Assembly (NCBI GenBank): GCA_913055155.1
Contig: CAJXJR010000013.1
Location: 62,001-126,000, forward strand
DNA: 64,000 nt
Direction of reading: 5' to 3'
From: an uncultured Erythrobacter sp.
GTDB taxonomy: Bacteria > Pseudomonadota > Alphaproteobacteria > Sphingomonadales > Sphingomonadaceae
Shown piece by piece: positions 15,211-60,093 of this stretch; position 1 is the first letter of the stretch; each line of letters starts with the position of its first letter. The notes under the pieces are model-generated. The model was not told where the DNA came from, ran no database searches, and worked only from the letters and a program-made list of their open reading frames with translations. The position numbers and the translations under genes were made by a program.

Positions 15211-16619
15211 CAGTCCCCGGTCAGGATCCGGTCGACCAGCTGCTTCACCGTGGGGGTAAAGTTGTTCGAATAGAACGGGTCGGTCTTGAAGTTGAAGGCT
15301 GCGTGTCCGGCAAAGGCCAGGTTCTGGTTCACGTCGCCGCCGTGGGCAATATCCTGCAGGGTCTTCTGAATGCAGAAGCTGCGCGGATCGGCCAGGCGGC
15401 CGGTGGTGTAGTCGTCGTGGTCCTTCCAGCTGGAAAAACCGCAGTGCGACAGGCAGCCCATGCAATCGGCCTGGTCCTTGCGGATCTCGGCACGCTCCTC
15501 TGCGCTGACGAAGATGACGGTGTCGTCCGGCGTCTTAAGTGCATCGGTATAGCCTTCGGCTACCCAGGCGCGGGCGCGTTCGCGATCCTTGGGCGTGACC
15601 CAGAAGTTCTTGCCCTTCACGCCGACGTCGAGCTGTACCGTATGCTCACCCGCCTCGACCTTCGAATAGGGAATCTGCCGCTCGCTGCGGGCTTCCAGAT
15701 TGCGCAGGAACGGGTTGCGGACGGCGGAACTGTAGAAGCCGGTCGGGCTGAAGCGGTGCAACAGCACGTCGCCCTCGTCCAGGTTGCGCAGCATGTCCTT
15801 CCACCCTTGCGGGATCGGGCTTTCCTGCGTCAGCAGCGGACGCGTGCCGTACTGGAAGGCGATCTGCCCCAGTTCGGGGTTGTCGATCCAGTCTTCCCAG
15901 TCGCGCAGGTACCACACGCCGCCCGCCATCACGATTGGCACGTCTTCGGATACACCTTCCTTGCGCATCGTCGCGCGCAGGGCGGCAACGCGGGGATAGG
16001 GATCTTCGGGCTTTTCCGGGTCCTCTGCATTGGACAGGCCGTTGTGCCCGCCAGCAAGCCACGGGTCTTCGTAGACCACGGCCGCCATCAGGTGCGACAC
16101 CTTGTGATAGCTGCGCTTCCACAAGGCACGGAATGCGCGGGCGGAACTGATGATCGGCAGGTAGTTCACATCGAAGCGGGCCGCGATCTCGGCCAGCTTG
16201 TAGGGCATGCCGGCCCCGCAGGTGACGCCGGTAACGAGGCCGCGCGTGCGTTCCAGCACGCCTTCCAGCACGGCTTGCGCCCCGCCCATTTCCCACAGCA
16301 CGTTGATGTTGATCGCACCATTACCGCCGGCAATGTCATAGGCTTTCTTGACCTGCGCGGTGGCACCATCGATGGCGTACTTGATCAACTGCTCGTGACG
16401 TTCCTTGCGCGTCAGCTGGTCGTATACCTGCGGGATGATCTTGCCTTCGGCATCGTAGCTGTCGGCATTCACCGCGCTGACCGTGCCGATGCCGCCCGCA
16501 GCGGCCCACGCGCCTGAACTGGCGTGGTTGGTAGCGGAAACGCCCTTGCCGCCTTCGATCAGCGGCCAGACTTCGCGGCCACCATAGGAAATCGGCTTAA
16601 GACCCTTAAAACTCATCAT
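15210..16619 (-). CDS. nitronate monooxygenase-like flavin oxidoreductase, long form
   Basis: A 469-residue TIM-barrel FMN enzyme of the nitronate monooxygenase/FabK-like group. The N-terminal part has GGKGVSATNHASSGAWAAAG, the middle has GVTCGAGMP and IVMAGGVWYL, and later AFQYGTRPLLTQESP. The C-terminal ~100 residues are additional to the minimal family and include DCMGCLSHCGFSSW, a tight cysteine cluster. The gene starts inside the 3' end of the methyltransferase gene. ATG at 16619 or 16616 could be used. It is coupled to the hydrolase downstream. Confidence 0.8.
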   Translation of the reverse strand: MMSFKGLKPISYGGREVWPLIEGGKGVSATNHASSGAWAAAGGIGTVSAVNADSYDAEGKIIPQVYDQLTRKERHEQLIKYAIDGATAQVKKAYDIAGGNGAININVLWEMGGAQAVLEGVLERTRGLVTGVTCGAGMPYKLAEIAARFDVNYLPIISSARAFRALWKRSYHKVSHLMAAVVYEDPWLAGGHNGLSNAEDPEKPEDPYPRVAALRATMRKEGVSEDVPIVMAGGVWYLRDWEDWIDNPELGQIAFQYGTRPLLTQESPIPQGWKDMLRNLDEGDVLLHRFSPTGFYSSAVRNPFLRNLEARSERQIPYSKVEAGEHTVQLDVGVKGKNFWVTPKDRERARAWVAEGYTDALKTPDDTVIFVSAEERAEIRKDQADCMGCLSHCGFSSWKDHDDYTTGRLADPRSFCIQKTLQDIAHGGDVNQNLAFAGHAAFNFKTDPFYSNNFTPTVKQLVDRILTGD

Positions 16620-34727: not shown

Positions 34728-36284
34728 CTAGTCGAGCCGCGCGACAGCGTCCATCCACTCCGGCAGCGGAGCGGTGGATTGCATGAAGTCTGCGATGACC
34801 TCCGCGCCATCCTGCGTCGGCGTGTCTTCGGCAGAAAGGATCAGCATGATCGTGGGGTCTGCCGTTCCCAGCAGCCGGTCGCGCATGTTGGAAAGCTTCA
34901 GGCGCATGCGGCTGCTGCCGGTCCAGTCACCATGACGGAACAAGGTATAGGCCACGCGCTGCTGTCTGCCGAGCGCCTGCAGGCATTCACCCCGTGCGCC
35001 ATCGGGAGCGGGCGCGTCGTCAAGCCAGCGCCATTCGGTCTCCAGCGGCAAGGCACCTTCGCCATAGGCCCCGGCTTCGCGCCCGTCTTCCTGCGCGGCG
35101 TAGATGGCGTAGACCACGTCCACCACCCTGCCCTGTGCATCACGATAGCTGGCGGTGAGGCGACGGTCTGCCCCGCCTGCGCGCGGCTGCCAGGGATAAG
35201 TCTGGTCCAGCGCCGTGCGTGTCCAGCCCTGCACTTGCGGCAAGGCGATCTCATCGGACAGTTTCGCTTCGACGCTGCGCGCCTGCGCCGACCAGGCCAC
35301 CATGCCCAGCGCCACCAGTGCCAGCGCCGCCAGCACGCTCCAGCCATTGGCATTCCAGCGTTCGAGCCGGGCGGGCCAGGCGGCTGCGGCAATCCGGTCG
35401 GCGTCGATAAACGGATCGTCAACCTTGCGGTCAAAGAACTTCCAGCCCAGCCCCAGCAGTGCGGCCATGACCAGCGCGAAGAAGATCCACCCGTAGACAA
35501 TGTGATCGAACCCGGCGGCAAAGGCGATACCCTGCGACTGGGCGATATAGATCGTGCCCCATGCGCGCACCCCGTTGGCGAGGATCGGCAACACCACTGC
35601 GGCAGCCATGAACACCGCCCGGCGCGTCCACGAGCGGAAGCAGACGTGGGAGACCAGCGTGCCAAGCGCCACCATGGCGACCAAGAACTTCACCCCCGAA
35701 CAGGCTTCCGCCACCTCGAACAGCCCCGCAGGCGTATCGATGAACACGCCTTCGATCAATGCGGGGATGCCGCTGGCGTGCGTCAGCGCGATGGTGATGT
35801 GCGCGGTAATCATCTGCAAGGCCGGCACTAGTTCCTCGCCCAGCGGAACCAGGAACAGGGCGAAGGCGAGCGGAAATAGCAGCGCCCATGCCACGCGCGG
35901 GCCCAGCAGGGTGATGACACTGGCCTGCATGGCCATGACCACCCCCAGGTGGCTGATCGTGGCGGTGCCGGATACGTCGCCCAGCAACCATCCGAACAAC
36001 GCGCCTGCCACCAGCACCAGTCCCGGCCACCAGGCCTGCGGGGCCAGCAGCGCCAGCTGCGGTGCGCGTTGCCACACCAGCCAGCCCAGGATGAACGGCA
36101 CGATCAGGATGTGGTTGTAGGTGGAGGTGTTCCACCAATGCTCCACCATCGTGGCCCAGTCGGCAGCGAACAACGCGAACAGGGCAAGCCATGCCAGTGC
36201 AAGGCGCAGCAAGGGCCGGCGCCACGTGGGCGCGATCATCTCGGCCACCAGCGCCAGGCGCGGAGAGATCGCGTCAAGCCGCAT
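34728..36284 (-). CDS. xrtA: exosortase A fused to EpsI domain
   Basis: Membrane cysteine transpeptidase that sorts PEP-CTERM proteins, 518 residues. The N-terminal ~300 residues are polytopic and carry the catalytic set: Cys195 in EACSGVKFL, Arg240 in ANGVRAWGT and His261 in FDHIVYGWIFF. The C-terminal ~200 residues are an EpsI-type soluble domain after one more helix (VLAALALVALGMVAWSA). I chose ATG 36284, which overlaps the glycosyltransferase stop by 11 bases. No PEP-CTERM substrate gene is visible in this window. Confidence 0.95.
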   Translation of the reverse strand: MRLDAISPRLALVAEMIAPTWRRPLLRLALAWLALFALFAADWATMVEHWWNTSTYNHILIVPFILGWLVWQRAPQLALLAPQAWWPGLVLVAGALFGWLLGDVSGTATISHLGVVMAMQASVITLLGPRVAWALLFPLAFALFLVPLGEELVPALQMITAHITIALTHASGIPALIEGVFIDTPAGLFEVAEACSGVKFLVAMVALGTLVSHVCFRSWTRRAVFMAAAVVLPILANGVRAWGTIYIAQSQGIAFAAGFDHIVYGWIFFALVMAALLGLGWKFFDRKVDDPFIDADRIAAAAWPARLERWNANGWSVLAALALVALGMVAWSAQARSVEAKLSDEIALPQVQGWTRTALDQTYPWQPRAGGADRRLTASYRDAQGRVVDVVYAIYAAQEDGREAGAYGEGALPLETEWRWLDDAPAPDGARGECLQALGRQQRVAYTLFRHGDWTGSSRMRLKLSNMRDRLLGTADPTIMLILSAEDTPTQDGAEVIADFMQSTAPLPEWMDAVARLD

Positions 36285-37497
36285 CGCGGCAAGTCCCCTG
36301 CTCCATGCCAAGCAGCTGCGGCAGGTCTGCCAGCATGGCCGGCCAGCTCATCTGTTCGAGGACGAAGCGGCGCGCCTCGCTGCCCAGCGCGTGCCCAGTC
36401 TCCGGTTCCTCGCTCAGGCGCAGCAGGTTGGCGACGAAGGCCGCGTCGTCCTCTGCGATTACGAACTGTGCATTGCTGCGTGCATCGATCCCGGTGGCGG
36501 CATCGGCGGACACCACCACTGGCCGCGCCATGGCCATGGCTTCCAGCACCTTGTTCTGCACCCCGCGCGCAATCGTAAGCGGGGCGACAACGACATCGGC
36601 ACCTGCCAGCCACGGGCGGGTATCGGGTACCTCGCCCACCACCTGCGTGCCATTCACACCCTCCAGCGCGAGCACTTCGCGAGCAGGGGCGCGACCGACC
36701 ACGTGGAACCGTGCCTCAGGCAGCGCTTGCCGCACCTCTGGCATGATCCGCTGCGCCATTCGCACGGCTGCCTCGACATTGGGTGCGTAGTCCATCTGTC
36801 CAGTGAAGACATAATGCGGGCCGCCTGTCGCAAGCGATGGCTCCGGCTGAATGGCGGCGGGATCGAACACAGCGCAATCGATGCCGTTGCGCAAAGCGCG
36901 GATGTCGTGCGTGCCGGGCGTCCGGCTGCGCAGGAATTCGGCCTCGGCCTCGCTCACCAGCAAGGTAGCGTCGGCGCGCGCAACCAGATCGGCCTCGACC
37001 GCCTTCAGCAAACGCCCTTCACGGCTGTCCATCCAGCTGCGCGGCGCCTTGCCGGCCTTGCCGTAGGCTTCGAACTTGGCGGAATCGACATCGACAAGGT
37101 CCAGCAACAGGCGTCCGCGCCAGCCTTGCGGCACATATTGCCCCATCTGGCCGGAAAAGACGTAGATCGCCGAAATATCGCGGGTGCGGATCGTTTCCTC
37201 CACCCAGCGCGCCAGCCTGGCGGAACGGAACGCTGTAAAGCTGACCGGCTCGCCGCGCAGCAACGCCTCGACACCCGCCAGCGACAACGGCTTGGAGCGG
37301 CGCGGCATGCACCAGCTCTTGGCGACCTCGGCCAGCATGTGTTCGTTCGCGACATCGGCATCGGTCTCGGCCAGGCAGCCGACATGCACCGGCGCGATCC
37401 GCGCCAGGGCCTTCAGCACATGGTGCGAACGGATCTTGTCGCCGCGGTCGGGTGGGAACGGCAACCGGTAGGCAAGGAAGAGGATCTGGCCACTCAC
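36274..37497 (-). CDS. XrtA/PEP-CTERM system glycosyltransferase (TIGR03087-like)
   Basis: A 407-residue GT4-type glycosyltransferase of the exosortase A system. The N-terminus GQILFLAYRLPFPPDRGDKI is typical, with R-S-H-H next. The nucleotide-sugar end has APLTIARGVQNKVLEAMAMARPVV near residue 310. The start is GTG at 37497, which overlaps the FemAB stop as GTGA; a longer frame starting 37560 has no family content. It should add a sugar to the exopolysaccharide repeat on the cytoplasmic face; the specific sugar is unknown. Confidence 0.92.
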   Translation of the reverse strand: MSGQILFLAYRLPFPPDRGDKIRSHHVLKALARIAPVHVGCLAETDADVANEHMLAEVAKSWCMPRRSKPLSLAGVEALLRGEPVSFTAFRSARLARWVEETIRTRDISAIYVFSGQMGQYVPQGWRGRLLLDLVDVDSAKFEAYGKAGKAPRSWMDSREGRLLKAVEADLVARADATLLVSEAEAEFLRSRTPGTHDIRALRNGIDCAVFDPAAIQPEPSLATGGPHYVFTGQMDYAPNVEAAVRMAQRIMPEVRQALPEARFHVVGRAPAREVLALEGVNGTQVVGEVPDTRPWLAGADVVVAPLTIARGVQNKVLEAMAMARPVVVSADAATGIDARSNAQFVIAEDDAAFVANLLRLSEEPETGHALGSEARRFVLEQMSWPAMLADLPQLLGMEQGTCRDAA

Positions 37498-38552
37498 CCC
37501 AACCCCCGCGCGATGTAAGGCCCGACGAGGTTGGCGAGCGGCAGCGGCAGCTTCTTCCACAGCGCGATGCGCGACTGGTGCCGCGCGCTGGTGGGATCGG
37601 CATCGCGCGCCTCGTGCCCCGGCGCGGTCCAGCTGGCGTAGGACAACGGCTGTGGGTCGAAACCCCAGTTCTTCTTGAAGTGGTAAGCCCCGCTGCCGGT
37701 CTTGCTGCGCCCGAAGTCGAAGCGGTCGCAGCCGCGCTTGCGAGCGTGCAGCATTAGTTCGTAATACATCCGATCATTGGCGCGCAGGCGGCGGGCATCC
37801 CAGGTGCCCCCGCCCCAGTAGGGCATCACCGCGCCGTCGTGATACAGCGACAGCACGCTGGCGATGGGCGTGCCCTCGTTCCATACTGTCAGGATATCGG
37901 CGTCGAGCCGGTTTATCACGGAATCGAACAGGCTTTGGGGAAACACCGGCGTGCCCAGGTTGCGCACGCTTTCGGCATAGACCTTGTAATGCGCCGCGCG
38001 CTCCAGTGAAGCCGCGCCTGTGGTAACGGCAAAATCGTGCTTCAGCCCCTTGCGCACTTCGGCGCGCTGCTTGCGCGGGATGGCGGTCAGCTGCGCCTCG
38101 TCATCCTCCGCCAGGGGGGCGATGAAACCGCAATGGCTATCCTGCCGCACCTGCCAGCCCTCCCCCGCGAAACCGCCACGCAGTTCGACCGTGGGGCACG
38201 ACAGCCGCAGCGCCAGCTTTTGCACCGCATCGCCCAGCAGGCAGGCGGTAACATCATTCTGTGCCAGCACCCCGCCCTCCACGGCAAAGCCGGACGAGGC
38301 GAGCATGCGGCCGAAAATCGGCGAGTGCACTTCGGTCAGCGGCAGCCAGCCGGTCAGGCGACCACCCTTCTCCGCCACCAGCCCGCGCGCGCGCTGGCTG
38401 ATGCCTTCCTCCACCGCCAGCAACCATGCCGGGCGATGGAAAACGGACCCGCCATGTTCGGCGACAAAGCCTTCGATCCGCGCTGCTTCGTCAGGCTGGT
38501 GCAGGTCCACGGCGTGCACGCTTTCGCGAGCCAGGGCGAAGGGCGCGTTCAT
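37494..38552 (-). CDS. FemAB-like acyltransferase, XrtA/PEP-CTERM associated
   Basis: A 352-residue protein of the GNAT-fold FemAB type. Conserved elements include GGSVFHRPAWLLAVEEG near residue 34, KQRAEVRKGLKHDF near 165, and DRFDFGRSKTGSGAYHFKKN near 288, which is the C-terminal signature. Such proteins transfer aminoacyl or acyl groups, so it may decorate the polysaccharide. The gene overlaps the deacetylase upstream and the glycosyltransferase downstream by four bases each. Confidence 0.9.
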   Translation of the reverse strand: MNAPFALARESVHAVDLHQPDEAARIEGFVAEHGGSVFHRPAWLLAVEEGISQRARGLVAEKGGRLTGWLPLTEVHSPIFGRMLASSGFAVEGGVLAQNDVTACLLGDAVQKLALRLSCPTVELRGGFAGEGWQVRQDSHCGFIAPLAEDDEAQLTAIPRKQRAEVRKGLKHDFAVTTGAASLERAAHYKVYAESVRNLGTPVFPQSLFDSVINRLDADILTVWNEGTPIASVLSLYHDGAVMPYWGGGTWDARRLRANDRMYYELMLHARKRGCDRFDFGRSKTGSGAYHFKKNWGFDPQPLSYASWTAPGHEARDADPTSARHQSRIALWKKLPLPLANLVGPYIARGLG

Positions 38553-39460
38553 CCGTGCACCGCCTTTTCAAGCCGCAGGCGCAGGTTTTCGCGCTTGGCG
38601 ACCGCGTCCATCCTTCCCCACTGGAATTCGCGCACCAGTTGCTCCAGCTTGCCCGCCATCTTGTCGAGGTTGGTGTAGTGGCGCAGGCGCGAACGCAGCG
38701 GCGCGCCGGAGACACGCGGTTGGCCAGGGTCGATTTCCCAGGGGTGGAAATAGAACACGGCCGGGCGGCCATCGTTGCGATTGACCTGGCGGATCGCCCA
38801 GCGGCTGAAGGCATAGGGCAACACGCGGAAGAACCCGCCTCCACCAGCTGCCAGCCGCTTGCCGCGAAACACGGCCGTGGTGACCGGAATCTCCACGAAA
38901 TTGCTGCCTTCGACGGGCTTGAAGGCAAATCGCGGTGCCTCGGCCCAGCCATAATGGTCGTGCGCAATCGGCGCCACGCTGGAGGAATAGGCATAACCCG
39001 CCTCTGCCAGCACCTCGTGCGCCCACGGCGTGCGCGCGTCGATGGAGAAGCTGGGAGCGCGATAGCCCACCACCCGCGTGCCGCTGGCGTCTTCCAGCAC
39101 ATTGCGCGTGCGGGCAATGTCGGTGGCAAAGCTGCGCGCATCCATGCGGAACACGCGCTGGTCATCCCAGCCGTGGCTGGCGATCTCGTGGCCGCGATCG
39201 GCAATGTCGCGCAGCAGGCCGGCATGGCGCTGCGCCACCCAGCCTAGCGTGAAAAAGGTGCCCTTGGCGTCGACGGCATCGAACAGGTCGAGGATCTGGC
39301 GGACATTGCGGTCCACCCGGTCATCCAGCGCGCCCCACTGGTCACGCTCAATAACGTCCTCAAACGCGCCCACCTGGAACCAGTCCTCGACATCGACCGA
39401 CAGGCCGTTGACGATGGTCTCCGGCTTGTCCGGCCTGTTGACGAAACTCTGCGCGTTCAC
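38549..39460 (-). CDS. polysaccharide deacetylase, XrtA-associated (DUF3473 type)
   Basis: A 303-residue NodB-fold deacetylase. The N-terminal motif is SVDVEDWFQ near residue 23. The metal/His motif is HEIASHGWDDQRVF near 90. FYFHPWEIDPGQPR near 240 is the segment specific to the exosortase-associated subgroup with the DUF3473 C-terminus. No signal peptide is visible, so action on lipid-linked intermediates is likely (inference). Its ATG at 39460 lies 26 bases after the original end of the ATPase frame. Confidence 0.92.
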   Translation of the reverse strand: MNAQSFVNRPDKPETIVNGLSVDVEDWFQVGAFEDVIERDQWGALDDRVDRNVRQILDLFDAVDAKGTFFTLGWVAQRHAGLLRDIADRGHEIASHGWDDQRVFRMDARSFATDIARTRNVLEDASGTRVVGYRAPSFSIDARTPWAHEVLAEAGYAYSSSVAPIAHDHYGWAEAPRFAFKPVEGSNFVEIPVTTAVFRGKRLAAGGGGFFRVLPYAFSRWAIRQVNRNDGRPAVFYFHPWEIDPGQPRVSGAPLRSRLRHYTNLDKMAGKLEQLVREFQWGRMDAVAKRENLRLRLEKAVHG

Positions 39461-39681
39461 GGCGGTTCAGCTCCTGCGGCGGTCCATCAGGCAGCCTTGC
39501 TCGAATCCATTTCGCTTTCGATCCAGTCGATCAGCATGGTCAGCGTCTGGCGGATCGTGCGCTCCTGCTCGAAACACTTGGCTTCGACACGGGCGATCTG
39601 CGCGCGCAGCGTTTCGACCTCGGGCGTTACCGTTTCGGCAATCGCGGCATCGCGCTGTTCGGCCATCTCGACGATGGCCTG

Positions 39682-40641
39682 CTACAATTCGGCGATCTGC
39701 GCATCGCGTTCGGCTAGGTATTGCTCGAGCATTACCTTGTCGACGCGCGGCGTGGTCGGCATGGCCGTCACCGGCTCGAAGCTGGCTTCCTGCTTGGGCA
39801 TCGGCGAAGGTGCGGCTTCGGGGAAGGCGCGTTCGGCTTCCATCTCGGCCAGCACGTTCTGCAGCATGGCGGCATCGATGCGGTTGCGCTCTTCCACAGC
39901 GCCCAGCAACAGCAGGCGGTTGGCGATCTGGTTCACCCGGCGCGGGATACCGCCGCTGGCTTCGTACAGTTCGGCGAACACGCGCTGGTCGAAAGCGGGA
40001 TTGCCATCCCAGCCCACGATCTTCAGGCGGTGGACGATGTAGGGCTCGATCTCGCCCTTCTGCATCGGCTCCAGGTGGTGCGCGGCGATCACGCGCTGGC
40101 GCAACTGCTCCAGCCCCGGATCGCTCTGCAAGGTAGAGCGGAATTCAGGCTGACCCAGCAGCAGCGTCTGCAGCAGCGGGTGGTTGCCTAGCTGGAAGTT
40201 GGACAGCATGCGCAGTTCCTCGAGGGCGGAGACCGTGAGGTTCTGCGATTCGTCCATCACCAGCAGACAGCGCCGGCCTTCGCGGGCTTCCTCGTGCAGG
40301 AAACTCTCGATTTCGGTGAGCGCGGTAGCCTTGTCGTGCCCTTCGATATCGAGGCCGAAGCTGCGCGCCACCACATGGACGATTTCCTCGCCGTCCAGCT
40401 TGCTGGTGACGACCTGCGCCACGGTGACCTGGCTTTCGTCCAGGCTTTCCATCATGTGCGCGACCAGCGTCGACTTGCCCGAGCCCACTTCGCCGGTGAT
40501 GACGATGAAGCCCTCGCCCTGCGCCAGGCCATAGCCGAGGTAGGACAGCGCCTTGCGGTGCGTGACCGAGCGGAAATAGAATTCCGGATCGGGCGTCAGC
40601 TGGAAAGGCTTGCCGGTGAGGCCGTAGAAGTTATCGAACAT
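39682..40641 (-). CDS. XrtA-associated AAA+ ATPase, cut short by an in-frame amber codon
   Basis: ExeA/GspA-type AAA ATPase of the exosortase A cluster. The sequence reads MFDNFYGLTGKPFQLTPDPE, then Walker A VITGEVGSGKSTLVAHMM near residue 47 and Walker B CLLVMDESQNLTVS near 126. The frame stops at a TAG (39682-39684) after 319 residues. The same frame continues uninterrupted for another 65 codons to a TGA at 39487 as a charged coiled-coil tail (QAIVEMAEQRDAAIAE at first). The codon following the TAG is CAG, so a CAG to TAG change is the simplest explanation. The AAA domain is complete, so a truncated protein might still work. Confidence 0.85.
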   Translation of the reverse strand: MFDNFYGLTGKPFQLTPDPEFYFRSVTHRKALSYLGYGLAQGEGFIVITGEVGSGKSTLVAHMMESLDESQVTVAQVVTSKLDGEEIVHVVARSFGLDIEGHDKATALTEIESFLHEEAREGRRCLLVMDESQNLTVSALEELRMLSNFQLGNHPLLQTLLLGQPEFRSTLQSDPGLEQLRQRVIAAHHLEPMQKGEIEPYIVHRLKIVGWDGNPAFDQRVFAELYEASGGIPRRVNQIANRLLLLGAVEERNRIDAAMLQNVLAEMEAERAFPEAAPSPMPKQEASFEPVTAMPTTPRVDKVMLEQYLAERDAQIAEL

Positions 40642-40666: not shown

Positions 40667-42346
40667 TCAATCAAAGGTGTAGCGAAGGCCCAGCAGGGCC
40701 GATGCAGATGAATAATCGGGCAGGTTGTCGCGGCTGATCCCGTCCAAGCCGACGGCGGCAACGCCGGTCAGCCCGCGCCACAGGTTGCGGTTGTAGGCGA
40801 CCGAGGCGGAGTAGCCGATGCCATCGCCAAGATTACCCGAACCCGCGTCGAACCAGCTGGCATAGGCCCCTGCGGAAATACCCGAATTGCGATCCAGCTG
40901 CTGCGCCAGGTTGGCGGCGACGTAATAGCTTTCGTCGATCACGCCACCGACATCGGCCAGCACGGTGTTCTCGCCGCCGAAGAAGCTGCGCCGATCGTAG
41001 CCCGCGCCGATACCGAAAGATGTGCGCCCGCGCGACCAGCCATAGCTGGCGGCAATCCCGCGGTTGCGGAACACCGAGCTGCGCAGCGAATTGAGCTGCG
41101 CCAGCGTGCAGTTGTTGCCTTCCACGCCGATCACGCAGCCGCCAAGGTCGCCCGAGATCGGGTTGCGCGCGGCGGTGAATTCGGTGCCCAGCAGGTCCAG
41201 AGCACTGGTCAGCTGCCCGCCAAAGCCGGTGATGTTGTCGTAAACGGCAATGTTCAGGCCCGAATGGGAATTGGGGGAGTAGGACAGGTTACCGTAATAG
41301 GTGGTAGAGCCGTAGCGGCGTCCCACGTGCGCTTCCACCGAGGTGCGACTGCTGGGCCGCCACATCACGCCCACGTCCCAGATCAGCCCGTCAGTCTCGT
41401 AGACGATCTGGCGCGGCTGGCTGTCATCGGTGACAAGGCGGCCATCGGGGCCGATCACCGGGTCGCCGTTCGCGTCCAGCAGGGCATCACGGCTCGAAAT
41501 CTGCACGTCTTCGTAGCCGACGCCGCCCACCAGGGCGAGCGTGGGCGACAGCGGCACGGTAACGTCGCCGCGCACGTATTTGTCGTCGATCCGCTGGTCG
41601 AGGTTGGATACGTCCTGGCGGTTCCACCCTGCCCCAACGCCCACGCCGATCGGCGCGATCGTGCGCGGGGCCACGCCCACGCGAACGGCAGCATTGTGGG
41701 TGATCGAATCGTCGAAGATATCGACCGGGTCCTCGTCCGGCGCGGTAACGATGGCATCGGACGATTCCACACGGGCATAGCCCAGGCGATAGTGTCCACT
41801 GATCTCGACCGGGCCGGACCGCGTCTGCACCGAAGGTCCGGCGTAAACGGCATAGACCTGGCTGGTCGAATCCTCGTTGCCGCCGATCTACCCGACGGAA
41901 CTGAAACCGCTGCCGTCCACGCTGGTACGCGAGGCAAGTCCGCCTGCCTCCAGCGTCACGCCGCGGCGATAGAGCCCCATGGAGGCACGCGCGATGCCGG
42001 AAATCGTATCGCTGTCGACAGCGTTGCCGTAGCCGATATCGCGCTCGTAACGGAGCGAGGCCGAGGCCGCGCTGTTGCGCCCGGTCACACTCGCATCCAC
42101 ACCGGCAGCAAGCTGGGTGTAGGTCAGCACGTCGCTACCCGGCTCGATCTGCGCGGTGACGACCTGTGAGGCTTCAATGTAGGGTCGCACATCGGCGCCA
42201 TTGGTGCGGTCGGGTCGATCACTGTCGCGGCTGGCATCCATGGCGGATGCGGCCGAGCCCTGTTCCTGCGCTTGCGCACACTGCGACACCGCGACAGGCG
42301 CCACGGCGAGACCAAGGGCAATGCTGGGACGATAGTGCATCGGCAT
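40667..42346 (-). pseudogene. XrtA/PEP-CTERM outer-membrane beta-barrel protein, interrupted by amber codon
   Basis: The frame of 559 codons starts at ATG 42346 with a leader ending AQAQEQGSA. It resembles the TIGR03016 family of exosortase-linked outer-membrane proteins, with many beta strands and a C-terminal GLRYTFD anchor motif. A TAG at 41888-41890 stops it after residue 152 (GSGFSSVG). Translation in the same frame resumes IGGNEDSTSQVYAVYAG and runs to the end. No start codon with a good ribosome site follows the stop; the GTG at 41830 lacks a leader. As sequenced, the barrel cannot be made without readthrough. Confidence 0.85.
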
Positions 42347-43350
42347 CACGGCTCCTCCCCGTAATAAGCGCCGAAGCGGCGTCCGCTGGGGCTGAAATGC
42401 GCCGCGTTCAGCAGCAGCTTGAGATCGGGGCAGGCCGAAAGCAGCGTCAGCGCATCTTCCAGCGCGCTCTGACCGGTGCGATCCGCCCTGGCGACCACGA
42501 TGGCCTGACCTACGTGCTTGGCCAGTTCGGCGGCCGGCGAAGCTGCAAGCGCCGGCGGGCTGTCGAAGATCACGATCCGCTTGGGCGAACCGCGCGTCAG
42601 CCGGTCCAGCACTTCGGCGGTGCGATGGCTGGCAAGGTATTCGCTGTCCGACGTGGTGTGGTTGCCTGCAGGCAGCACGTGCAGCCCGGCAACGTCGGTG
42701 GCCAGTACGCAGTCCTCCACCTTCAGGTCTTCGCGGGCCAGCACGTCCATGAAGCCCGGCCCCTTGGGCAGGCCCAGCATCCTGAGGACAGACGGCTTGG
42801 CGAAATCGGCATCCACCAGCAGCACTTCGCTGTCCTTCTCCGCCGCCATGGCCAGCGCCAGGTTGACCGCGCAATAGCTCTTGCCCTCGTCGGGATGCGG
42901 CGAACACACCAGCACGCGCTGCGCCAGCGCGCCGGACCCGGCCGCCTGCGCCTTGCGCACCGATTGCAGCACCTGCCGCTTCACGATGCGGAATTCCTCC
43001 AGCAACGCGGTCACCTGTCCTTCGGGCTGGATCAGGCCGAAACGCGTCAGACACTCGCGATCGATCGGATGTACGGTATCGCTGAATTCGACGTCTTCGT
43101 AGACCGGCTCGGGCGCTGGCGCAGGGGCCGCACCGGGCGTGGGCTGCGCCACGTCTTCTGGCACTGGTGGAAAGGCCAGCGGCGCTTCTGTCGCCTTTGT
43201 CCTGGGCGTTGCCCGGCGGGGACGGCGGTTGACGGGTTTCTTCAGCTCCTTGGGCACCTTGGCCGGCTTGTATCCGCCAAGGCCGAACATGCTTTCGGCT
43301 CGTTCCAGTAGCGTCTTGGGCGGCTCTGGCGTGTTGCTCTGATCAGTCAT
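42346..43350 (-). CDS. XrtA-associated tyrosine autokinase (Wzc/CpsD-type)
   Basis: A 334-residue cytoplasmic BY-kinase-type P-loop ATPase. A proline-rich N-terminal region (about residues 25-85) precedes the kinase core. The core has SPHPDEGKSYCAVNLALAMA (Walker A) near residue 155, VLLVDADFAKPS (Walker A') near 180 and RIVIFDSPPALA (Walker B) near 260. The C-terminus has only two tyrosines, in GAYYGEEP, fewer than in classical kinases. It would work with the chain-length protein encoded just upstream to control polymer length. The start codon of the next gene overlaps its stop by one base. Confidence 0.9.
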   Translation of the reverse strand: MTDQSNTPEPPKTLLERAESMFGLGGYKPAKVPKELKKPVNRRPRRATPRTKATEAPLAFPPVPEDVAQPTPGAAPAPAPEPVYEDVEFSDTVHPIDRECLTRFGLIQPEGQVTALLEEFRIVKRQVLQSVRKAQAAGSGALAQRVLVCSPHPDEGKSYCAVNLALAMAAEKDSEVLLVDADFAKPSVLRMLGLPKGPGFMDVLAREDLKVEDCVLATDVAGLHVLPAGNHTTSDSEYLASHRTAEVLDRLTRGSPKRIVIFDSPPALAASPAAELAKHVGQAIVVARADRTGQSALEDALTLLSACPDLKLLLNAAHFSPSGRRFGAYYGEEP

Positions 43351-43361
43351 CGCCCAGCTCC

Positions 43362-44879
43362 TCAGGCCACCATGCCGCGTTGGACGAATTCCACGCCCAG
43401 CAGCACCACGAACAGGACGCCAAGGCCACCGACCCCGGCTGCGAAATACTTGAGGCGCTTGGTGCGCAGTTCGCGACCGGCCTCGGTGAATGTGTGCGAA
43501 ATCGTGCCGATCACCGGCAGGCCGAAGCTGCGCTCCAGCTGCCCTGCAGTGGCGAATGTGGAGCCCAGCTTGCTCATCGCATAGGCAGCGCCGCCACCGG
43601 CACCCATGCCCACGACCAGCACGCCGAAGAGCAGCAGCGGGCGGTTGGGCGCAGCAGGCTTGCGCGGTGTGGTGGGCGGATCGACAACCTCGAACTGCAC
43701 TGCGCTGCGTTCGCTTTCCACCTGTCCGCGCAGGCGCAGTTCCTCGCGGTCCTGCAGCAACTGGTCGTACTGCTCGCGCAGCACGTCATAGTCGCGGCGG
43801 ATGCGCTGGGCTTCGGCAGCGGCGCCGGGTTCGCGCATCTGGCTGGCCGTGATGGCGGCGATCTCTGACCGCAGCGCTGTTGCGCGCGACTGCAACGATT
43901 GCACGTTGGCCTGGCGCTCCACCAGCATCGATTGCAGCGTGGCATAGGCCGGGTTGGTCGCGCCACCGGCCGGGCCGGCAGCCTGTGCCTGTTCACGCAA
44001 GGTGGCGACCTGGCGGCGTGCGGCCACCATGTCCGGGTGTTCATCGGTAAGCCCGCGCGCTTCCAGCGCGGCAAGGTTCGCTTCCGCCTGTGCCAGCGAA
44101 GCTTGCGGACCGCCCGACCCCGGCGTGACGATAAAGCGCGGGGTGTTCGAAATCTGTCCTTCCAGCGCTGCCATCGCGCTCTGCGAGGCGGCAAGGTCGC
44201 TCTCGACACTGCGCAGTTCGGCGCGGGTGGCCGCCAGCTGGTTGGCAATCGCCTGCGCGCCGCCGATCAGTTCGGGATTGGCAGCCTCGAAGGCCAGGCG
44301 CCGTTCTTCGGCGACTTCCAGCTCGGCTTCGCGCTGGGCCAGTTGCTGGTTCAGGAACGCAATCGAATCCTGCATCTCGCCGCGCGCCCCGCCCAGGTTT
44401 TCCTCGCGGAAGATATCGATCATGCGCTGCGCGATGACCTGCGCCAGTTCGGCGTTCTCGGCATCGGACAGGTCGCTGCGACCGCTGGTGGCAGTGATTT
44501 CGAAGATGTTGTCGCCTTGGCTGACGACTTCGATGTCCTTGGTCAGGCCTTCAATGGCCGCTTCCATTTCGGTGGGTGTGGTCACGCTGTCACCGATGCG
44601 AGTGGAACGGACCACGGTTTCGAGGTTGACCGAGCTCACCAGCGTCTGGCGGATACGATCAATATCGCGCGCGCGGCTGGCAGCGCCAATGCCGATCTGT
44701 TCGGCCAGCACGTCGTCCAGCTGCACGAAGATGCGCGTTTCGCTCTCGTAGCTGTTGGGAATCAGCGCAACGACCAGCCAGCCCAGCAGGCAGGTCGCCC
44801 AGGCGACGCCCAGCGCCAGCCAGCGCCGATTCCAGATCGCCCATGTGCCGGCACGCAATTCTTCGAGAAGCTGGTTCAA
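43362..44879 (-). CDS. XrtA system polysaccharide chain-length determinant (Wzz/GumC-type)
   Basis: Inner-membrane polysaccharide copolymerase, 505 residues. A first helix (WLALGVAWATCLLGWLVVAL) is near residue 20 and further helices follow at the end, the last in LKYFAAGVGGLGVLFVVLLG. The long periplasmic part is coiled coil, with heptads between residues 170 and 370 (LAQREAELEVAEERRLAFEA). A PxxP-like segment (PPTTPRKPAAPNRP) lies before the C-terminal helices, as in Wzz proteins. It lacks the fused kinase, which is the separate next gene, 11 bases downstream. Confidence 0.93.
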   Translation of the reverse strand: MNQLLEELRAGTWAIWNRRWLALGVAWATCLLGWLVVALIPNSYESETRIFVQLDDVLAEQIGIGAASRARDIDRIRQTLVSSVNLETVVRSTRIGDSVTTPTEMEAAIEGLTKDIEVVSQGDNIFEITATSGRSDLSDAENAELAQVIAQRMIDIFREENLGGARGEMQDSIAFLNQQLAQREAELEVAEERRLAFEAANPELIGGAQAIANQLAATRAELRSVESDLAASQSAMAALEGQISNTPRFIVTPGSGGPQASLAQAEANLAALEARGLTDEHPDMVAARRQVATLREQAQAAGPAGGATNPAYATLQSMLVERQANVQSLQSRATALRSEIAAITASQMREPGAAAEAQRIRRDYDVLREQYDQLLQDREELRLRGQVESERSAVQFEVVDPPTTPRKPAAPNRPLLLFGVLVVGMGAGGGAAYAMSKLGSTFATAGQLERSFGLPVIGTISHTFTEAGRELRTKRLKYFAAGVGGLGVLFVVLLGVEFVQRGMVA

Positions 44880-44894: not shown

Positions 44895-45581
44895 TTAGAA
44901 CATGCTCTCGGGGATGATGATCACGTCGCCGGGGTTCAGCATGACGTTGGCATCGCTGTCGCCGCGGCGCAGCAGGTCGGACAGGCGCAGCGAATACTCG
45001 CGCTGCTCGCCCGACTGGCGATCGAAACGGATCAGCGTGGCGCGGTTGCCCGCGGCGTATTCGGACAGGCCGCCGACCGCGATCATCGCATCGAGCAGCG
45101 TCATGTTGGCGCGGTAGGGGATCGAGGCAGGCTGTTCGGTTGCACCCACGATGCGCACCTGCTGGCTGAAGGTACCCGCGAACTCGTTCACGATCACCGT
45201 CACCAGCGGTTCCTCGATATATTGCGACAGCTGCAGGCGGATATCCTCTGCCAGCATGGTTGGCGTCTTGCCGACGGCCGGCATGTCGGCCACCAGCGGC
45301 GTGGTGATGCGGCCATCGGGGCGCACCTGCACTTCGGCACCCAGTTCGTCGTTACGCCAGACGTGGATGGTCAGCTTGTCGAGCGGGCCGATGACGTATT
45401 CCTCGCCCGGCCCTTCCTGCATGGCGACAAAGCGCGCAGGTTCCAGCTGCGGCCCTGCCGCACCCCCGCCGCAGCCGGACAGGCCAACGGCAAGGCTCGC
45501 CGAGGCGAGGAGGAGACTGACAGGCCTTTTTAGTGCGCATTTATGCGTCCTTCGCGAAGTACGGGTGGACCGCGCATGCAA
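44895..45581 (-). CDS. polysaccharide export lipoprotein (Wza/GumB-type), possible frameshift at start
   Basis: Outer-membrane or periplasmic export protein with a poly-export motif (YVIGPLDKLTIHVWRND, then PDGRITTPLVADM) and SLBB-like repeats. A lipobox, LSGC, follows a hydrophobic leader SLLLASASLAVG. The only in-frame start for the full sequence is TTG at 45581, which has no clear ribosome site. An ATG at 45540 has AAGGA seven bases upstream but lies one base out of frame. Removing one A from the five-A run (45527-45531 on plus strand) would give MRTKRPVSLLLASAS. See findings. Confidence 0.85.
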   Translation of the reverse strand: MHARSTRTSRRTHKCALKRPVSLLLASASLAVGLSGCGGGAAGPQLEPARFVAMQEGPGEEYVIGPLDKLTIHVWRNDELGAEVQVRPDGRITTPLVADMPAVGKTPTMLAEDIRLQLSQYIEEPLVTVIVNEFAGTFSQQVRIVGATEQPASIPYRANMTLLDAMIAVGGLSEYAAGNRATLIRFDRQSGEQREYSLRLSDLLRRGDSDANVMLNPGDVIIIPESMF

Positions 45582-57639: not shown

Positions 57640-59279
57640 ATGTTCGGGTAATTCGGCCCGCCACCGCCTTCGGGCGTGGTCCAGGTGATGTTCTGGTTGG
57701 GGTCCTTGATGTCGCAGGTCTTGCAGTGGACGCAGTTCTGACTGTTGATCTGGAACTTCATCGTACCGTCGTCCTGCTCCAGCCACTCGTAGACACCTGC
57801 CGGGCAGTACCGCGTCGAAGGGCCGGCGTAGACCTCCAGCTCGCTGTCGTGCTGCAGCTGCATGTCCTTCACCTTCAGGTGGTTGGGCTGGTCCTCTGCA
57901 TGATTAGTGAAGCTGTAGGATACGCTGGTCAGGCGATCGAAGCTGATCGTGCCGTCGGGCTTGGGATAGTCGATCGGCTTGTGCAGGTCGGCGCGCTGCA
58001 GTTCCTCGTAATCGCGGTGGTGGCCCATCGCGCCGAGCCCCAGGCCCAGCGTGCGCAGCCACATGTCCGCGCCTGCCAGCACCGTGCCGATATCGCCGCC
58101 GAACCTGGCGACCAACGGCTGCGCGTTTTGCACCTTCTTCAGTTCCGTGGCGATCCAGCTGTCGCGCAGATTCGCCTCGTAGTCGCTGACTTCGGTATGT
58201 TCCTGCCCGGCGGCGATTGCGGCTGCCACCGCTTCGGCGGCCAGCATGCCGCTCTTCATCGCGGTGTGGCTGCCCTTGATCCGCGGCACGTTCACAAAGC
58301 CCGCCGCGCAGCCGATCAGCGCACCGCCGGGGAAGGCGAGCTTGGGCACCGACTGCCAGCCACCTTCGTTGATGGCGCGCGCACCGTAAGCAACGCGGGA
58401 GCCGCCTTCGAGGTATTCGCGGATCGCCGGATGCTGCTTCCAGCGCTGGAATTCCTGGAACGGGCTGACGTAGGGGTTCTTGTAATCGAGCGCGGTCACG
58501 AAGCCGAGCGCCACCTGGCCGTTGGCCTGGTGATAGAGAAAACCCCCACCCCAGGTATCGCTTTCACTGAGGGGCCAGCCCTGCGTGTGCAGCACGCGGC
58601 CCGGCACGTGCTTGTCCGGGTCGATATCCCACAATTCCTTGATGCCAAGGCCATAGACCTGCGGCTGGCAATTCGCCTCCAGGTCGAATTTCGCCTTCAT
58701 CTGCTTGGTTAGGTTACCGCGCGCCCCTTCGGCGAAGAGCGTGTACTTGGCGTGGATTTCCATGCCCGGCTGGAAATCGGGTTTATGACTGCCATCGGCG
58801 GCAACGCCCATGTCCTGCGTGATAACGCCGGTCACCGCGCCGTCATCGCCGAACATCACTTCGGCAGCGGGGAAGCCGGGGAACACCATCACGCCTGCTG
58901 CCTCGGCCTGTTCGGCCAACCAGCGGGTGAGGTTGCCGAGCGAACCGGTGTAGCAGCCCTTGTTGCTCATCAACGGCGGCATCATGGCGTGCGGCATGTT
59001 GATCTTGCCGGTCTTGGTCAGCATCCAGTGCCAATTGTCGGTCACCGGCGTTTCCGCCATCGGGCAATCCATGTCGCGCCAGTCGGGCAGCAGCTCGTCC
59101 AGTGCCTTCGGGTCCACCACGGCACCGGAAAGGATGTGCGCCCCGATCTCGGAGCCCTTTTCGAGAACGACGACTTCCAGCTCTTCGTTCAGCTGCTTCA
59201 GTCGGATCGCCGCCGAAAGGCCCGCGGGGCCGCCACCGACAATCACCACGTCCACGGGCATCGATTCCCGTTCAACCAT
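57636..59279 (-). CDS. electron transfer flavoprotein-ubiquinone oxidoreductase
   Basis: FAD/[4Fe-4S] enzyme at the inner membrane that passes electrons from ETF to ubiquinone; 547 residues. The FAD motif is VVIVGGGPAGLSAAIRL near residue 8. The 4Fe-4S ligands are in CPAGVYEWLEQ and INSQNCVHCKTCDIKDP near the C-terminus. The ATG at 59282 or 59279 is used; the second gives the better spacing (seven bases) to GAGG. It heads a minus-strand operon that reaches 51,216. Confidence 0.95.
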   Translation of the reverse strand: MVERESMPVDVVIVGGGPAGLSAAIRLKQLNEELEVVVLEKGSEIGAHILSGAVVDPKALDELLPDWRDMDCPMAETPVTDNWHWMLTKTGKINMPHAMMPPLMSNKGCYTGSLGNLTRWLAEQAEAAGVMVFPGFPAAEVMFGDDGAVTGVITQDMGVAADGSHKPDFQPGMEIHAKYTLFAEGARGNLTKQMKAKFDLEANCQPQVYGLGIKELWDIDPDKHVPGRVLHTQGWPLSESDTWGGGFLYHQANGQVALGFVTALDYKNPYVSPFQEFQRWKQHPAIREYLEGGSRVAYGARAINEGGWQSVPKLAFPGGALIGCAAGFVNVPRIKGSHTAMKSGMLAAEAVAAAIAAGQEHTEVSDYEANLRDSWIATELKKVQNAQPLVARFGGDIGTVLAGADMWLRTLGLGLGAMGHHRDYEELQRADLHKPIDYPKPDGTISFDRLTSVSYSFTNHAEDQPNHLKVKDMQLQHDSELEVYAGPSTRYCPAGVYEWLEQDDGTMKFQINSQNCVHCKTCDIKDPNQNITWTTPEGGGGPNYPNM

Positions 59280-59364
59280 CATTTCGCCTCGTTTTGCGGA
59301 ACAACCATCGGACGGGCCTTGATCGTTGGCTTGCAGGGCGTCAAGACCGGCAAAAGTTCCGACT

Positions 59365-60093
59365 ATGCAAAATCGCGCCGAATTCACGCTTGCAGATCAA
59401 TACGCCGCCACCATCGACTGGTGGCGCGATGCCGGCGTTGATTACGAGTTCTCGGACGAGGTCGAACCGCTGCTGGCCGACCCCGAAGAGGTCCAGAAAC
59501 ACGCACAGCCGGCCAAACCGGCGGCACCAGAGGAACAACCGCCCGAACCAGCGCTCACCAGCGCAGACCTGCCCGGCGACCTGCCGGCGTTTCGCGATTG
59601 GTGGGTCGGTCCGGACAACCCCTTTGCCACGGGCACGGCAGTGCGGCTGGCCCCGATCGGCAAGGAAGGCGCCCCGGTGATGGTGCTGACCGCCATGCCT
59701 GAAGCGGAAGACCGCAACAGCCTGCTGTCCGGCCCGCAAGGCCGCATGCTGGCCAACCTGCTGCGGGCGATCGGCATGGATCCGAACGCCGCCTATTTCG
59801 CCAGCGCCCTGCCCAGCCACACAACGCTGCCCGATTGGGACGATCTTGCACGCGACGGCCTGGGCACGGTGATCGCCCACCATGTCGCCCTTGCCAAACC
59901 GCAGCGCGTGCTGCTGCTGGGCAGCAAGCTGCCCGCCGTGCTGGGTCACGACCCCGCCGCCCCGCCAGAAGCGTTCGGCGCTATCGGCGAGACCGCGACC
60001 CTCGCAACATTCTCTCCCGACCGCCTGCTGGACCATGCCCGCCAACGTGCGCGGCTGTGGAAGCGGCTTTGCCAATGGACAGCCTCGGCATGA
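59365..60093 (+). CDS. uracil-DNA glycosylase-like protein, probably degenerate
   Basis: A 242-residue protein with the UDG family 4/5-like plan. RNSLLSGPQGRMLANLLRAIG near residue 122 matches the GxxGxLL segment. The first motif, normally GEAPGxxED, is VLTAMPEAEDR, and the second, usually an HP motif, is ATFSPDRLLDH. The catalytic residues therefore look replaced. The N-terminal 80 residues are Pro/Ala-rich. It may bind DNA without glycosylase activity. ATG at 59365; its stop overlaps the next gene's ATG by four bases. Confidence 0.7.
   Translation: MQNRAEFTLADQYAATIDWWRDAGVDYEFSDEVEPLLADPEEVQKHAQPAKPAAPEEQPPEPALTSADLPGDLPAFRDWWVGPDNPFATGTAVRLAPIGKEGAPVMVLTAMPEAEDRNSLLSGPQGRMLANLLRAIGMDPNAAYFASALPSHTTLPDWDDLARDGLGTVIAHHVALAKPQRVLLLGSKLPAVLGHDPAAPPEAFGAIGETATLATFSPDRLLDHARQRARLWKRLCQWTASA

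What the first reader, a model, noticed from the sequence alone, without database searches (positions are those of the whole stretch)
41888..41890. In-frame amber codon inside the XrtA outer-membrane barrel gene
The frame from 42346 reads 152 residues, meets TAG, and continues without another stop to 40667 with intact beta-barrel sequence and the C-terminal GLRYTFD. A CAG to TAG change is the simplest cause. Either the gene is dead, it is read through, or the sequence is wrong here. TAG is a normal stop elsewhere in the window (xrtA, amt, zapE), so codon reassignment is unlikely.
Basis: seen in the sequence. Interest (0 to 1): 0.75.

Follow-up and report, generated by a model that had tools for sequence, protein, structure and literature searches.

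The report
Two fresh stops in sugar-export operon
A bacterium's gene for an outer-membrane channel that probably exports a slimy sugar polymer is cut by a stop signal, and so is the next gene in the same operon; it looks like a recent, ordinary loss of a dispensable trait rather than a new way of reading the genetic code.

Summary
A TAG at 41888-41890 (minus strand) splits an otherwise open beta-barrel gene into 152 and 406 sense codons. All 67 fetched relative loci (53 distinct sequences) have the gene uninterrupted there.

It cuts off 64 conserved residues; none of 52 distinct relatives with data has a stop there.

Among 409 of the organism's own genes that could be aligned to congeners, these are the only strong internal stops. 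No CTA anticodon was found among 43 tRNAs, and prfA is intact. No other break was seen in the operon. Neither protein departs from columns that are 98% conserved.

Best reading: a very recent, real loss of function of an XrtA-type exopolysaccharide export operon. If the operon were neutral, two stops correspond to about 2% of the lineage's synonymous distance. Base-calling error and partial readthrough remain possible: no second strain, reads or proteomics were available. The event is ordinary; interest is modest.

The parts
40667..42346 (-). Beta-barrel outer-membrane protein gene of the XrtA/PEP-CTERM exopolysaccharide cluster, interrupted
   Evidence: Frame read; C-terminal part matches TIGR03016 at 35.1 bits, under its cut-off of 90.85; two intact relatives score 48.8 and 41.2, also under it; a model of an intact relative has 22 long strands
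41888..41890 (-). First in-frame TAG, codon 153
   Evidence: no stop in 53 distinct relatives; aligned codon CAG in 3 of 53, other sense codons in 50
41891..42346 (-). N-terminal 152 codons: signal-peptide-like start (judged by eye) and, by alignment to the modelled relative, 5 of 22 strands
40670..41887 (-). C-terminal 406 codons, still open: 17 of 22 strands, without the N-terminal signal region; the nine in-frame GTG codons within 400 bases after the TAG have none of four Shine-Dalgarno-like words in the 18 nt before them
39487..40641 (-). XrtA-associated ATPase gene, the next gene of the operon, interrupted
   Evidence: TIGR03015 at 355.3 bits, cut-off 324.5, model 1-269 of 269 within residues 1-270
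39682..39684 (-). Second in-frame TAG, codon 320
   Evidence: aligned codon CAG in 36, CAA in 12, Arg in 3, Ala in 1 of 52 distinct relatives with data; one further row is cut by a contig end
39490..39681 (-). Conserved 64-codon C-terminal tail of the ATPase, still open
   Evidence: 88, 92 and 83% identical to G010, G012 and G013
44895..45581 (-). Short OPX export protein, 228 aa, no break seen
   Evidence: TIGR03027 223.4 bits, cut-off 180; Poly_export plus SLBB domains ending at residue 223 of 228
43362..44879 (-). XrtA-system polysaccharide chain-length determinant, no break seen
   Evidence: TIGR03007 312.7 bits, cut-off 278.85
42346..43350 (-). XrtA-associated tyrosine autokinase, no break seen; its stop overlaps the barrel's ATG by one base
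   Evidence: TIGR03018 184.3 bits, below its cut-off of 230.65
38549..39460 (-). XrtA-system polysaccharide deacetylase, no break seen
   Evidence: TIGR03006 413.5 bits, cut-off 276.2
37494..38552 (-). FemAB-family XrtA-associated protein, no break seen
   Evidence: TIGR03019 309.1 bits, cut-off 260.35
36274..37506 (-). XrtA-system glycosyltransferase, no break seen
   Evidence: TIGR03087 397.2 bits, cut-off 316.65
34728..36311 (-). Exosortase A (XrtA) with EpsI-like C-terminal domain, no break seen, ends in TAG
   Evidence: TIGR03109 330.6 bits, cut-off 208; stop codon

Best explanation
Two recent nonsense mutations have switched off the XrtA-type exopolysaccharide (EPS) export operon in this strain. 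In intact relatives the barrel probably is the outer-membrane exit for the polysaccharide, partnered by the short periplasmic OPX protein encoded three genes upstream. Translation here stops after 5 of about 22 strands, in a loop that strand counting places outside the cell. The remaining 17 strands are encoded but lack the signal region and a good restart site, so no barrel should reach the outer membrane. In the next gene the ATPase keeps its whole AAA domain but loses a conserved 64-residue tail. Expected phenotype: no secreted EPS from this operon. Shown here: both stops, uninterrupted relatives, no suppressor tRNA found, intact RF1 gene, no further strong stop in 409 aligned genes, no decay at invariant columns. 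Inferred: the export role, loss of function, recency, and relaxed selection (in nature or culture) as the cause.
For: Stops in adjacent genes of one operon, none at these sites in relatives. They are the only strong internal stops in 409 aligned own genes / 402 kb; the second of two random lesions would fall in one of the other 8 operon genes with chance about 2% and in an adjacent gene about 0.5% (worked out after seeing the data). Recent: a neutral operon over the whole branch would carry about 87-89 nonsense changes, 2 seen; 2 match about 2% of a branch of dS 0.3, one-sided 95% limit about 7%. No window-specific departure at columns 98% conserved in either protein; at 90%, one in the barrel and none in the ATPase. 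About 61-64% of random nonsense changes here give TAG, so two ambers are unremarkable. The system is dispensable: two near-complete congeners (G006, G008) show neither barrel nor XrtA. In Sphingomonas LM7, in-frame deletion of the barrel gene prmC or of the AAA+ ATPase gene prmE gave EPS-negative cells (PMC11340318, section read).
Against: One assembly only: no reads, no second strain, no phenotype. dN of the barrel on this branch is 2.2 to 4.5 times that of two congeners (0.112 and 0.085 against 0.025-0.042; only 109 of 152 N-terminal codons aligned), but several intact genes of the window show as much. The ATPase does not (0.015 against 0.013 and 0.012 before the stop; 0.044 against 0.022 and 0.044 in the 64-codon tail). 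So there is no clean sign of relaxed selection, which is expected if the loss is very recent but is also what readthrough would give. The shortened ATPase may still work. Homology of the barrel and ATPase to LM7 PrmC and PrmE was not tested. The stop search would miss stops at which the alignment itself ends.
Confidence: 0.74

Rival explanations
1. Base-calling or assembly error at one or both codons; the strain is wild type.
For: Only one assembly was seen, in 21 contigs. The assembly is not perfect: no tRNA-Ile(GAT) or tRNA-Ala(TGC) was found among 43 tRNAs, so part of it is probably missing. Both proteins are otherwise undecayed.
Against: Two strong stops in adjacent genes and none in the 407 other aligned genes. 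Neither site lies in a homopolymer longer than three bases. Two nonsense errors in 402 kb would imply an error rate near 2 in 10,000 (inference).
Confidence: 0.12
3. Stop codon TAG is reassigned or suppressed genome-wide in this organism.
For: Two in-frame TAGs, at codons that are Gln in the nearest relatives, in one operon.
Against: No CTA tRNA among 43 (one in an unassembled part is not excluded); prfA intact; no third strong in-frame TAG in 409 aligned genes; TAG ended 92 of the 277 coding segments that met the filters of the scan on contig C1.
Confidence: 0.02

Closest known systems
Bacterial pseudogenes from recent mutation in exopolysaccharide or capsule genes
   Same: Small lesions in an otherwise intact pathway. 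Capsule-biosynthesis mutations acquired during routine culture are reported for Acinetobacter baylyi (PMC12442408, found passages only).
   Different: Two stops in neighbouring genes of an XrtA-type operon; whether this arose in nature or culture is unknown.
Composite OPX/beta-barrel translocon, M. xanthus EpsY/EpsX (Schwabe et al. 2022, PMC9601211; abstract and two sections read; the related PMC9603273 seen in passages only)
   Same: Short OPX protein (228 aa, within their 280 aa limit) with a beta-barrel gene in the same cluster, within five genes.
   Different: Model of the intact relative has 22 long strands, not 18; the barrel is broken here. Physical pairing untested.
Promonan cluster prmC/prmD/prmE of Sphingomonas sp. 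LM7 (PMC11340318; abstract, passages and two sections read)
   Same: Sphingomonad EPS cluster with barrel, OPX, AAA+ ATPase, chain-length and tyrosine-kinase genes; barrel and ATPase both needed for EPS.
   Different: The words PEP-CTERM and xrtA do not occur in the paper's main text, 'exosortase' once, for a gene outside this cluster; sequence homology was not compared here.
NCBIfam TIGR03016, PEP-CTERM system-associated outer membrane protein
   Same: The C-terminal half aligns over model positions 231-477 and the gene context fits.
   Different: Both intact relatives tested score under the curated cut-off (48.8 and 41.2 against 90.85).

Membership tests
Recent nonsense pseudogene | In-frame stop absent from orthologues | tested here: met
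   0 of 53 and 0 of 52 distinct relatives have a stop at the site
Recent nonsense pseudogene | Stop truly present in the organism | not testable with these tools
   One assembly, no reads
Recent nonsense pseudogene | No functional product made | not testable with these tools
   Needs proteomics or EPS assay
Recent nonsense pseudogene | Relaxed selection after the lesion | tested here: inconclusive
   Barrel dN raised but so are intact genes; ATPase not clearly raised; no departures at 98% conserved columns
TIGR03016 | Score above curated cut-off 90.85 bits | tested here: not met
   Intact relatives L061 48.8 and L034 41.2 bits
TIGR03015 (XrtA-associated ATPase) | Score above curated cut-off 324.5 bits | tested here: met
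   355.3 bits for the 319-residue truncated product
Composite OPX/beta-barrel translocon | OPX protein of 280 aa or less made of periplasmic domains only | tested here: met
   228 aa; Poly_export and SLBB domains reach residue 223; absence of a C-terminal helix judged from that, not modelled
Composite OPX/beta-barrel translocon | Beta-barrel gene within five genes of the OPX gene | tested here: met
   Third gene downstream of the OPX gene
Composite OPX/beta-barrel translocon | 18-stranded barrel, AlgE-like | tested here: not met
   22 strands of 9 or more residues in the model of L061; the 50 Foldseek rows shown, of 765 matches, are mostly TonB-dependent-type barrels at TM 0.44 or less and none is AlgE
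Composite OPX/beta-barrel translocon | OPX and barrel bind and stabilise each other | not testable with these tools
   Needs experiment
Amber suppression or reassignment | tRNA with CUA anticodon | tested here: not met
   43 tRNAs, none CTA; the assembly appears to lack tRNA-Ile(GAT) and tRNA-Ala(TGC)
Amber suppression or reassignment | Loss or damage of release factor 1 | tested here: not met
   prfA 492.6 bits, cut-off 423.25, no stop inside
Amber suppression or reassignment | Many genes with in-frame TAG | tested here: not met
   2 strong of 409 aligned genes, both in this operon

The most novel reading that the evidence does not exclude
The two ambers in adjacent export genes work together as a translational brake: low UAG readthrough sets EPS export at a few percent, reversible by single-base changes, so that the lineage toggles between mucoid and non-mucoid states.
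Probability: 0.05. Interest if true: 0.6.

Novelty: new member of a known kind. Interest (0 to 1): 0.25.

Why it matters
If true, the sequenced strain is a natural double mutant of an XrtA-type EPS export operon. Its surface phenotype should not be taken as typical of the species, and automatic annotation would report a truncated barrel and a shortened ATPase. It also shows that a single in-frame stop should be judged with its operon neighbours before readthrough or error is invoked.

Tried and rejected
Codon reassignment or tRNA suppression: rejected. Paralogue rescue: the C-terminal part has one match in the own genome, itself. Restart inside the gene: none of four Shine-Dalgarno-like words before the nine in-frame GTGs within 400 bases after the barrel TAG. 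Cluster-wide decay: no strong stop was found in the other genes of the operon. Other polysaccharide genes elsewhere: one TIGR03097 (O-antigen ligase/polymerase type) hit and three sugar-transferase family hits have no inner stop; whether they serve this pathway is unknown. A rise in dN as proof of relaxed selection: rejected as not specific. A frameshift-like pair of matches in the own genome at window 59091-60084: rejected, because the first 94 residues of the query are an extension upstream of the gene, over DNA that scores best on the other strand.

Led nowhere: a coding-potential scan for in-frame stops gave mostly what look like tandem genes, and a first relative comparison was swamped by antisense shadow frames; both were replaced by the comparison. 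One search used a frame off by one base and was redone. Own stretches of contigs C4, C5 and C16 found no partner region and add nothing to the count. The promoter and terminator scan gave nothing above shuffles. One search failed on a wrong frame and was dropped. Searches for 'TIGR03016' (0 papers) and 'Aurantiacibacter' with 'exopolysaccharide' (4 papers, listing only) gave no direct precedent in the held library.

Full report
OBSERVATION. On the minus strand, ATG at 42346 opens 152 codons, then TAG at 41888-41890, then 406 further sense codons to TGA at 40667-40669, ending GLRYTFD. The claim that TAG is an ordinary stop nearby holds for xrtA, the amidotransferase and zapE. The window lies in a 3.10 Mb, 21-contig genome rated 100% complete. 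Named relatives in the searches place it with Aurantiacibacter and kin; the species itself is not known.

RELATIVES. Thirty of 36 congeners searched have the gene. Of the six without it, four are 69-87% complete and two near-complete (G006 99%, G008 98%); none of the six shows XrtA. Across 67 relative loci (53 distinct sequences; several genomes appear twice because two searches found them) the reading frame runs uninterrupted through the site, two rows beginning at a contig edge. The aligned codon is CAG in the three closest distinct sequences and another sense codon in the other 50: Gly 23, Ala 11, Pro 9, Asp 3, Asn 2, Thr 1, Ser 1. So the position is variable, and one change from the nearest relatives gives TAG.

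A SECOND STOP. Comparing the window with syntenic regions of three congeners showed another TAG at 39682-39684, codon 320 of the next gene, the XrtA-associated ATPase. Sixty-four codons follow, 83-92% identical to the congeners. Of 53 distinct relatives one is cut by a contig end; the other 52 are open there, with Gln in 48 (36 CAG, 12 CAA), Arg in 3 and Ala in 1. The truncated product still covers the whole TIGR03015 model (355.3 bits, cut-off 324.5), so it may be partly active.

HOW SPECIAL IS IT. I held 841 kb of the own genome and compared it with regions of G030, G029, G010 and G013. Of this, 402 kb in 409 distinct own genes could be aligned. Only these two strong internal stops were found. 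Four weak ones lie near gene ends: three on contig C1 and TAA at window 16606-16608, three residues before the end of relatives. One frameshift-like pair (window 59091-60084) proved to be an upstream extension of the query and not a lesion. Stops at which an alignment breaks off would be missed. In the reverse direction, 371 of 745 own reading frames aligned to G030 and G029 and showed one strong stop (a TGA in G030), six weak ones and one frameshift-like gene. Broken genes are therefore rare on both sides, and here two are adjacent: about 2% chance for the same operon and 0.5% for an adjacent gene. These chances are given after seeing the data.

SUPPRESSION. Forty-three tRNAs were found and none has a CTA anticodon. 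tRNA-Ile(GAT) and tRNA-Ala(TGC) are absent from the list, so a part of the genome is probably unassembled and a suppressor there is not strictly excluded. prfA scores 492.6 bits without inner stops.

TIMING. Random single-base changes in the operon (3600 codons) are nonsense in about 2.7%; 61-64% of those give TAG, and 14-26% are CAG to TAG depending on the transition weight. A neutral operon over a branch of dS 0.3 would collect about 87-89 nonsense changes; two are seen. Two match about 2% of that branch, with a one-sided 95% limit near 7%. dS values per gene are noisy (0.18 to 0.99 on this branch for operon genes), so these shares are rough. Neither protein has a window-specific departure at columns 98% conserved; at 90% the barrel has one and the ATPase none. 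dN of the barrel on this branch is raised 2.2 to 4.5 fold over G010 and G013, but several intact genes of the window are raised as much; the ATPase is not raised before its stop, and its short tail equals G013 and is twice G010. I take no evidence from it.

MECHANISM. The cluster holds OPX, chain-length, tyrosine-kinase, deacetylase, FemAB, glycosyltransferase, exosortase and amidotransferase genes. An AlphaFold2 model of the intact relative L061 (mean pLDDT 79, pTM 0.77) has 22 strands of at least nine residues. The residue aligned to the stop (154 of L061) lies between long strands 5 and 6 in a weakly predicted stretch; strand counting from a periplasmic N-terminus puts it outside the cell (inference). 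So the first fragment has 5 strands and a start that looks like a signal peptide (by eye), the second 17 strands without one. Neither should assemble (inference). The OPX protein is short, 228 aa, with only Poly_export and SLBB domains, the kind that Schwabe et al. pair with a barrel (PMC9601211, sections read). In Sphingomonas LM7, deletions of prmC (barrel) and prmE (AAA+ ATPase) were EPS-negative (PMC11340318). The prediction is a strain that does not secrete this polysaccharide.

CAUSE. After one stop the rest of the operon loses its use and a second stop costs nothing; culture or a niche without need of EPS would both do (inference). The order of the stops and the setting cannot be told. 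The genome has another polysaccharide-type region (contig C2, about 243-276 kb, seen only as reading frames, and with a sugar-transferase hit at C2:245918-246691), which could make the loss tolerable (speculation).

LIMITS. There is one assembly, with no reads, no second strain of the species, and no protein or phenotype data. Error is given 0.12 and readthrough 0.10. Novelty is low: the kind of event is known, and the addition is that it is a two-gene event in an XrtA-type operon.

Noticed in passing
window 16606-16608, minus strand: TAA three residues before the end of the gene in relatives G010, G012 and G013, which have Gln there; probably a harmless C-terminal trim.
   Followed up: partly
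own genome (G000), whole assembly: No tRNA-Ile(GAT) or tRNA-Ala(TGC) among 43 tRNAs, which suggests that the ribosomal RNA operon region is missing from the assembly (that these tRNAs usually lie there is recalled).
   Followed up: no
L174-L175 (own contig C2, about 243-276 kb): Reading frames of what looks like a second surface-polysaccharide locus with nucleotide-sugar enzymes, judged by eye from translations; a TIGR03025 sugar-transferase hit lies at C2:245918-246691.
   Followed up: no
own genome contig C4:56273-56341: Only one PF07589 PEP-CTERM match in the own genome. G006, which shows no XrtA, has two. A passage of PMC1569441, cut off at its start, suggests that PF07589 finds only a part of such tails.
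   Followed up: no
joined L142-L157, position 174586 (G030): A strong in-frame TGA at a Trp position in a conserved gene of the congener G030, and a frameshift-like break elsewhere in it; used only as background.
   Followed up: no
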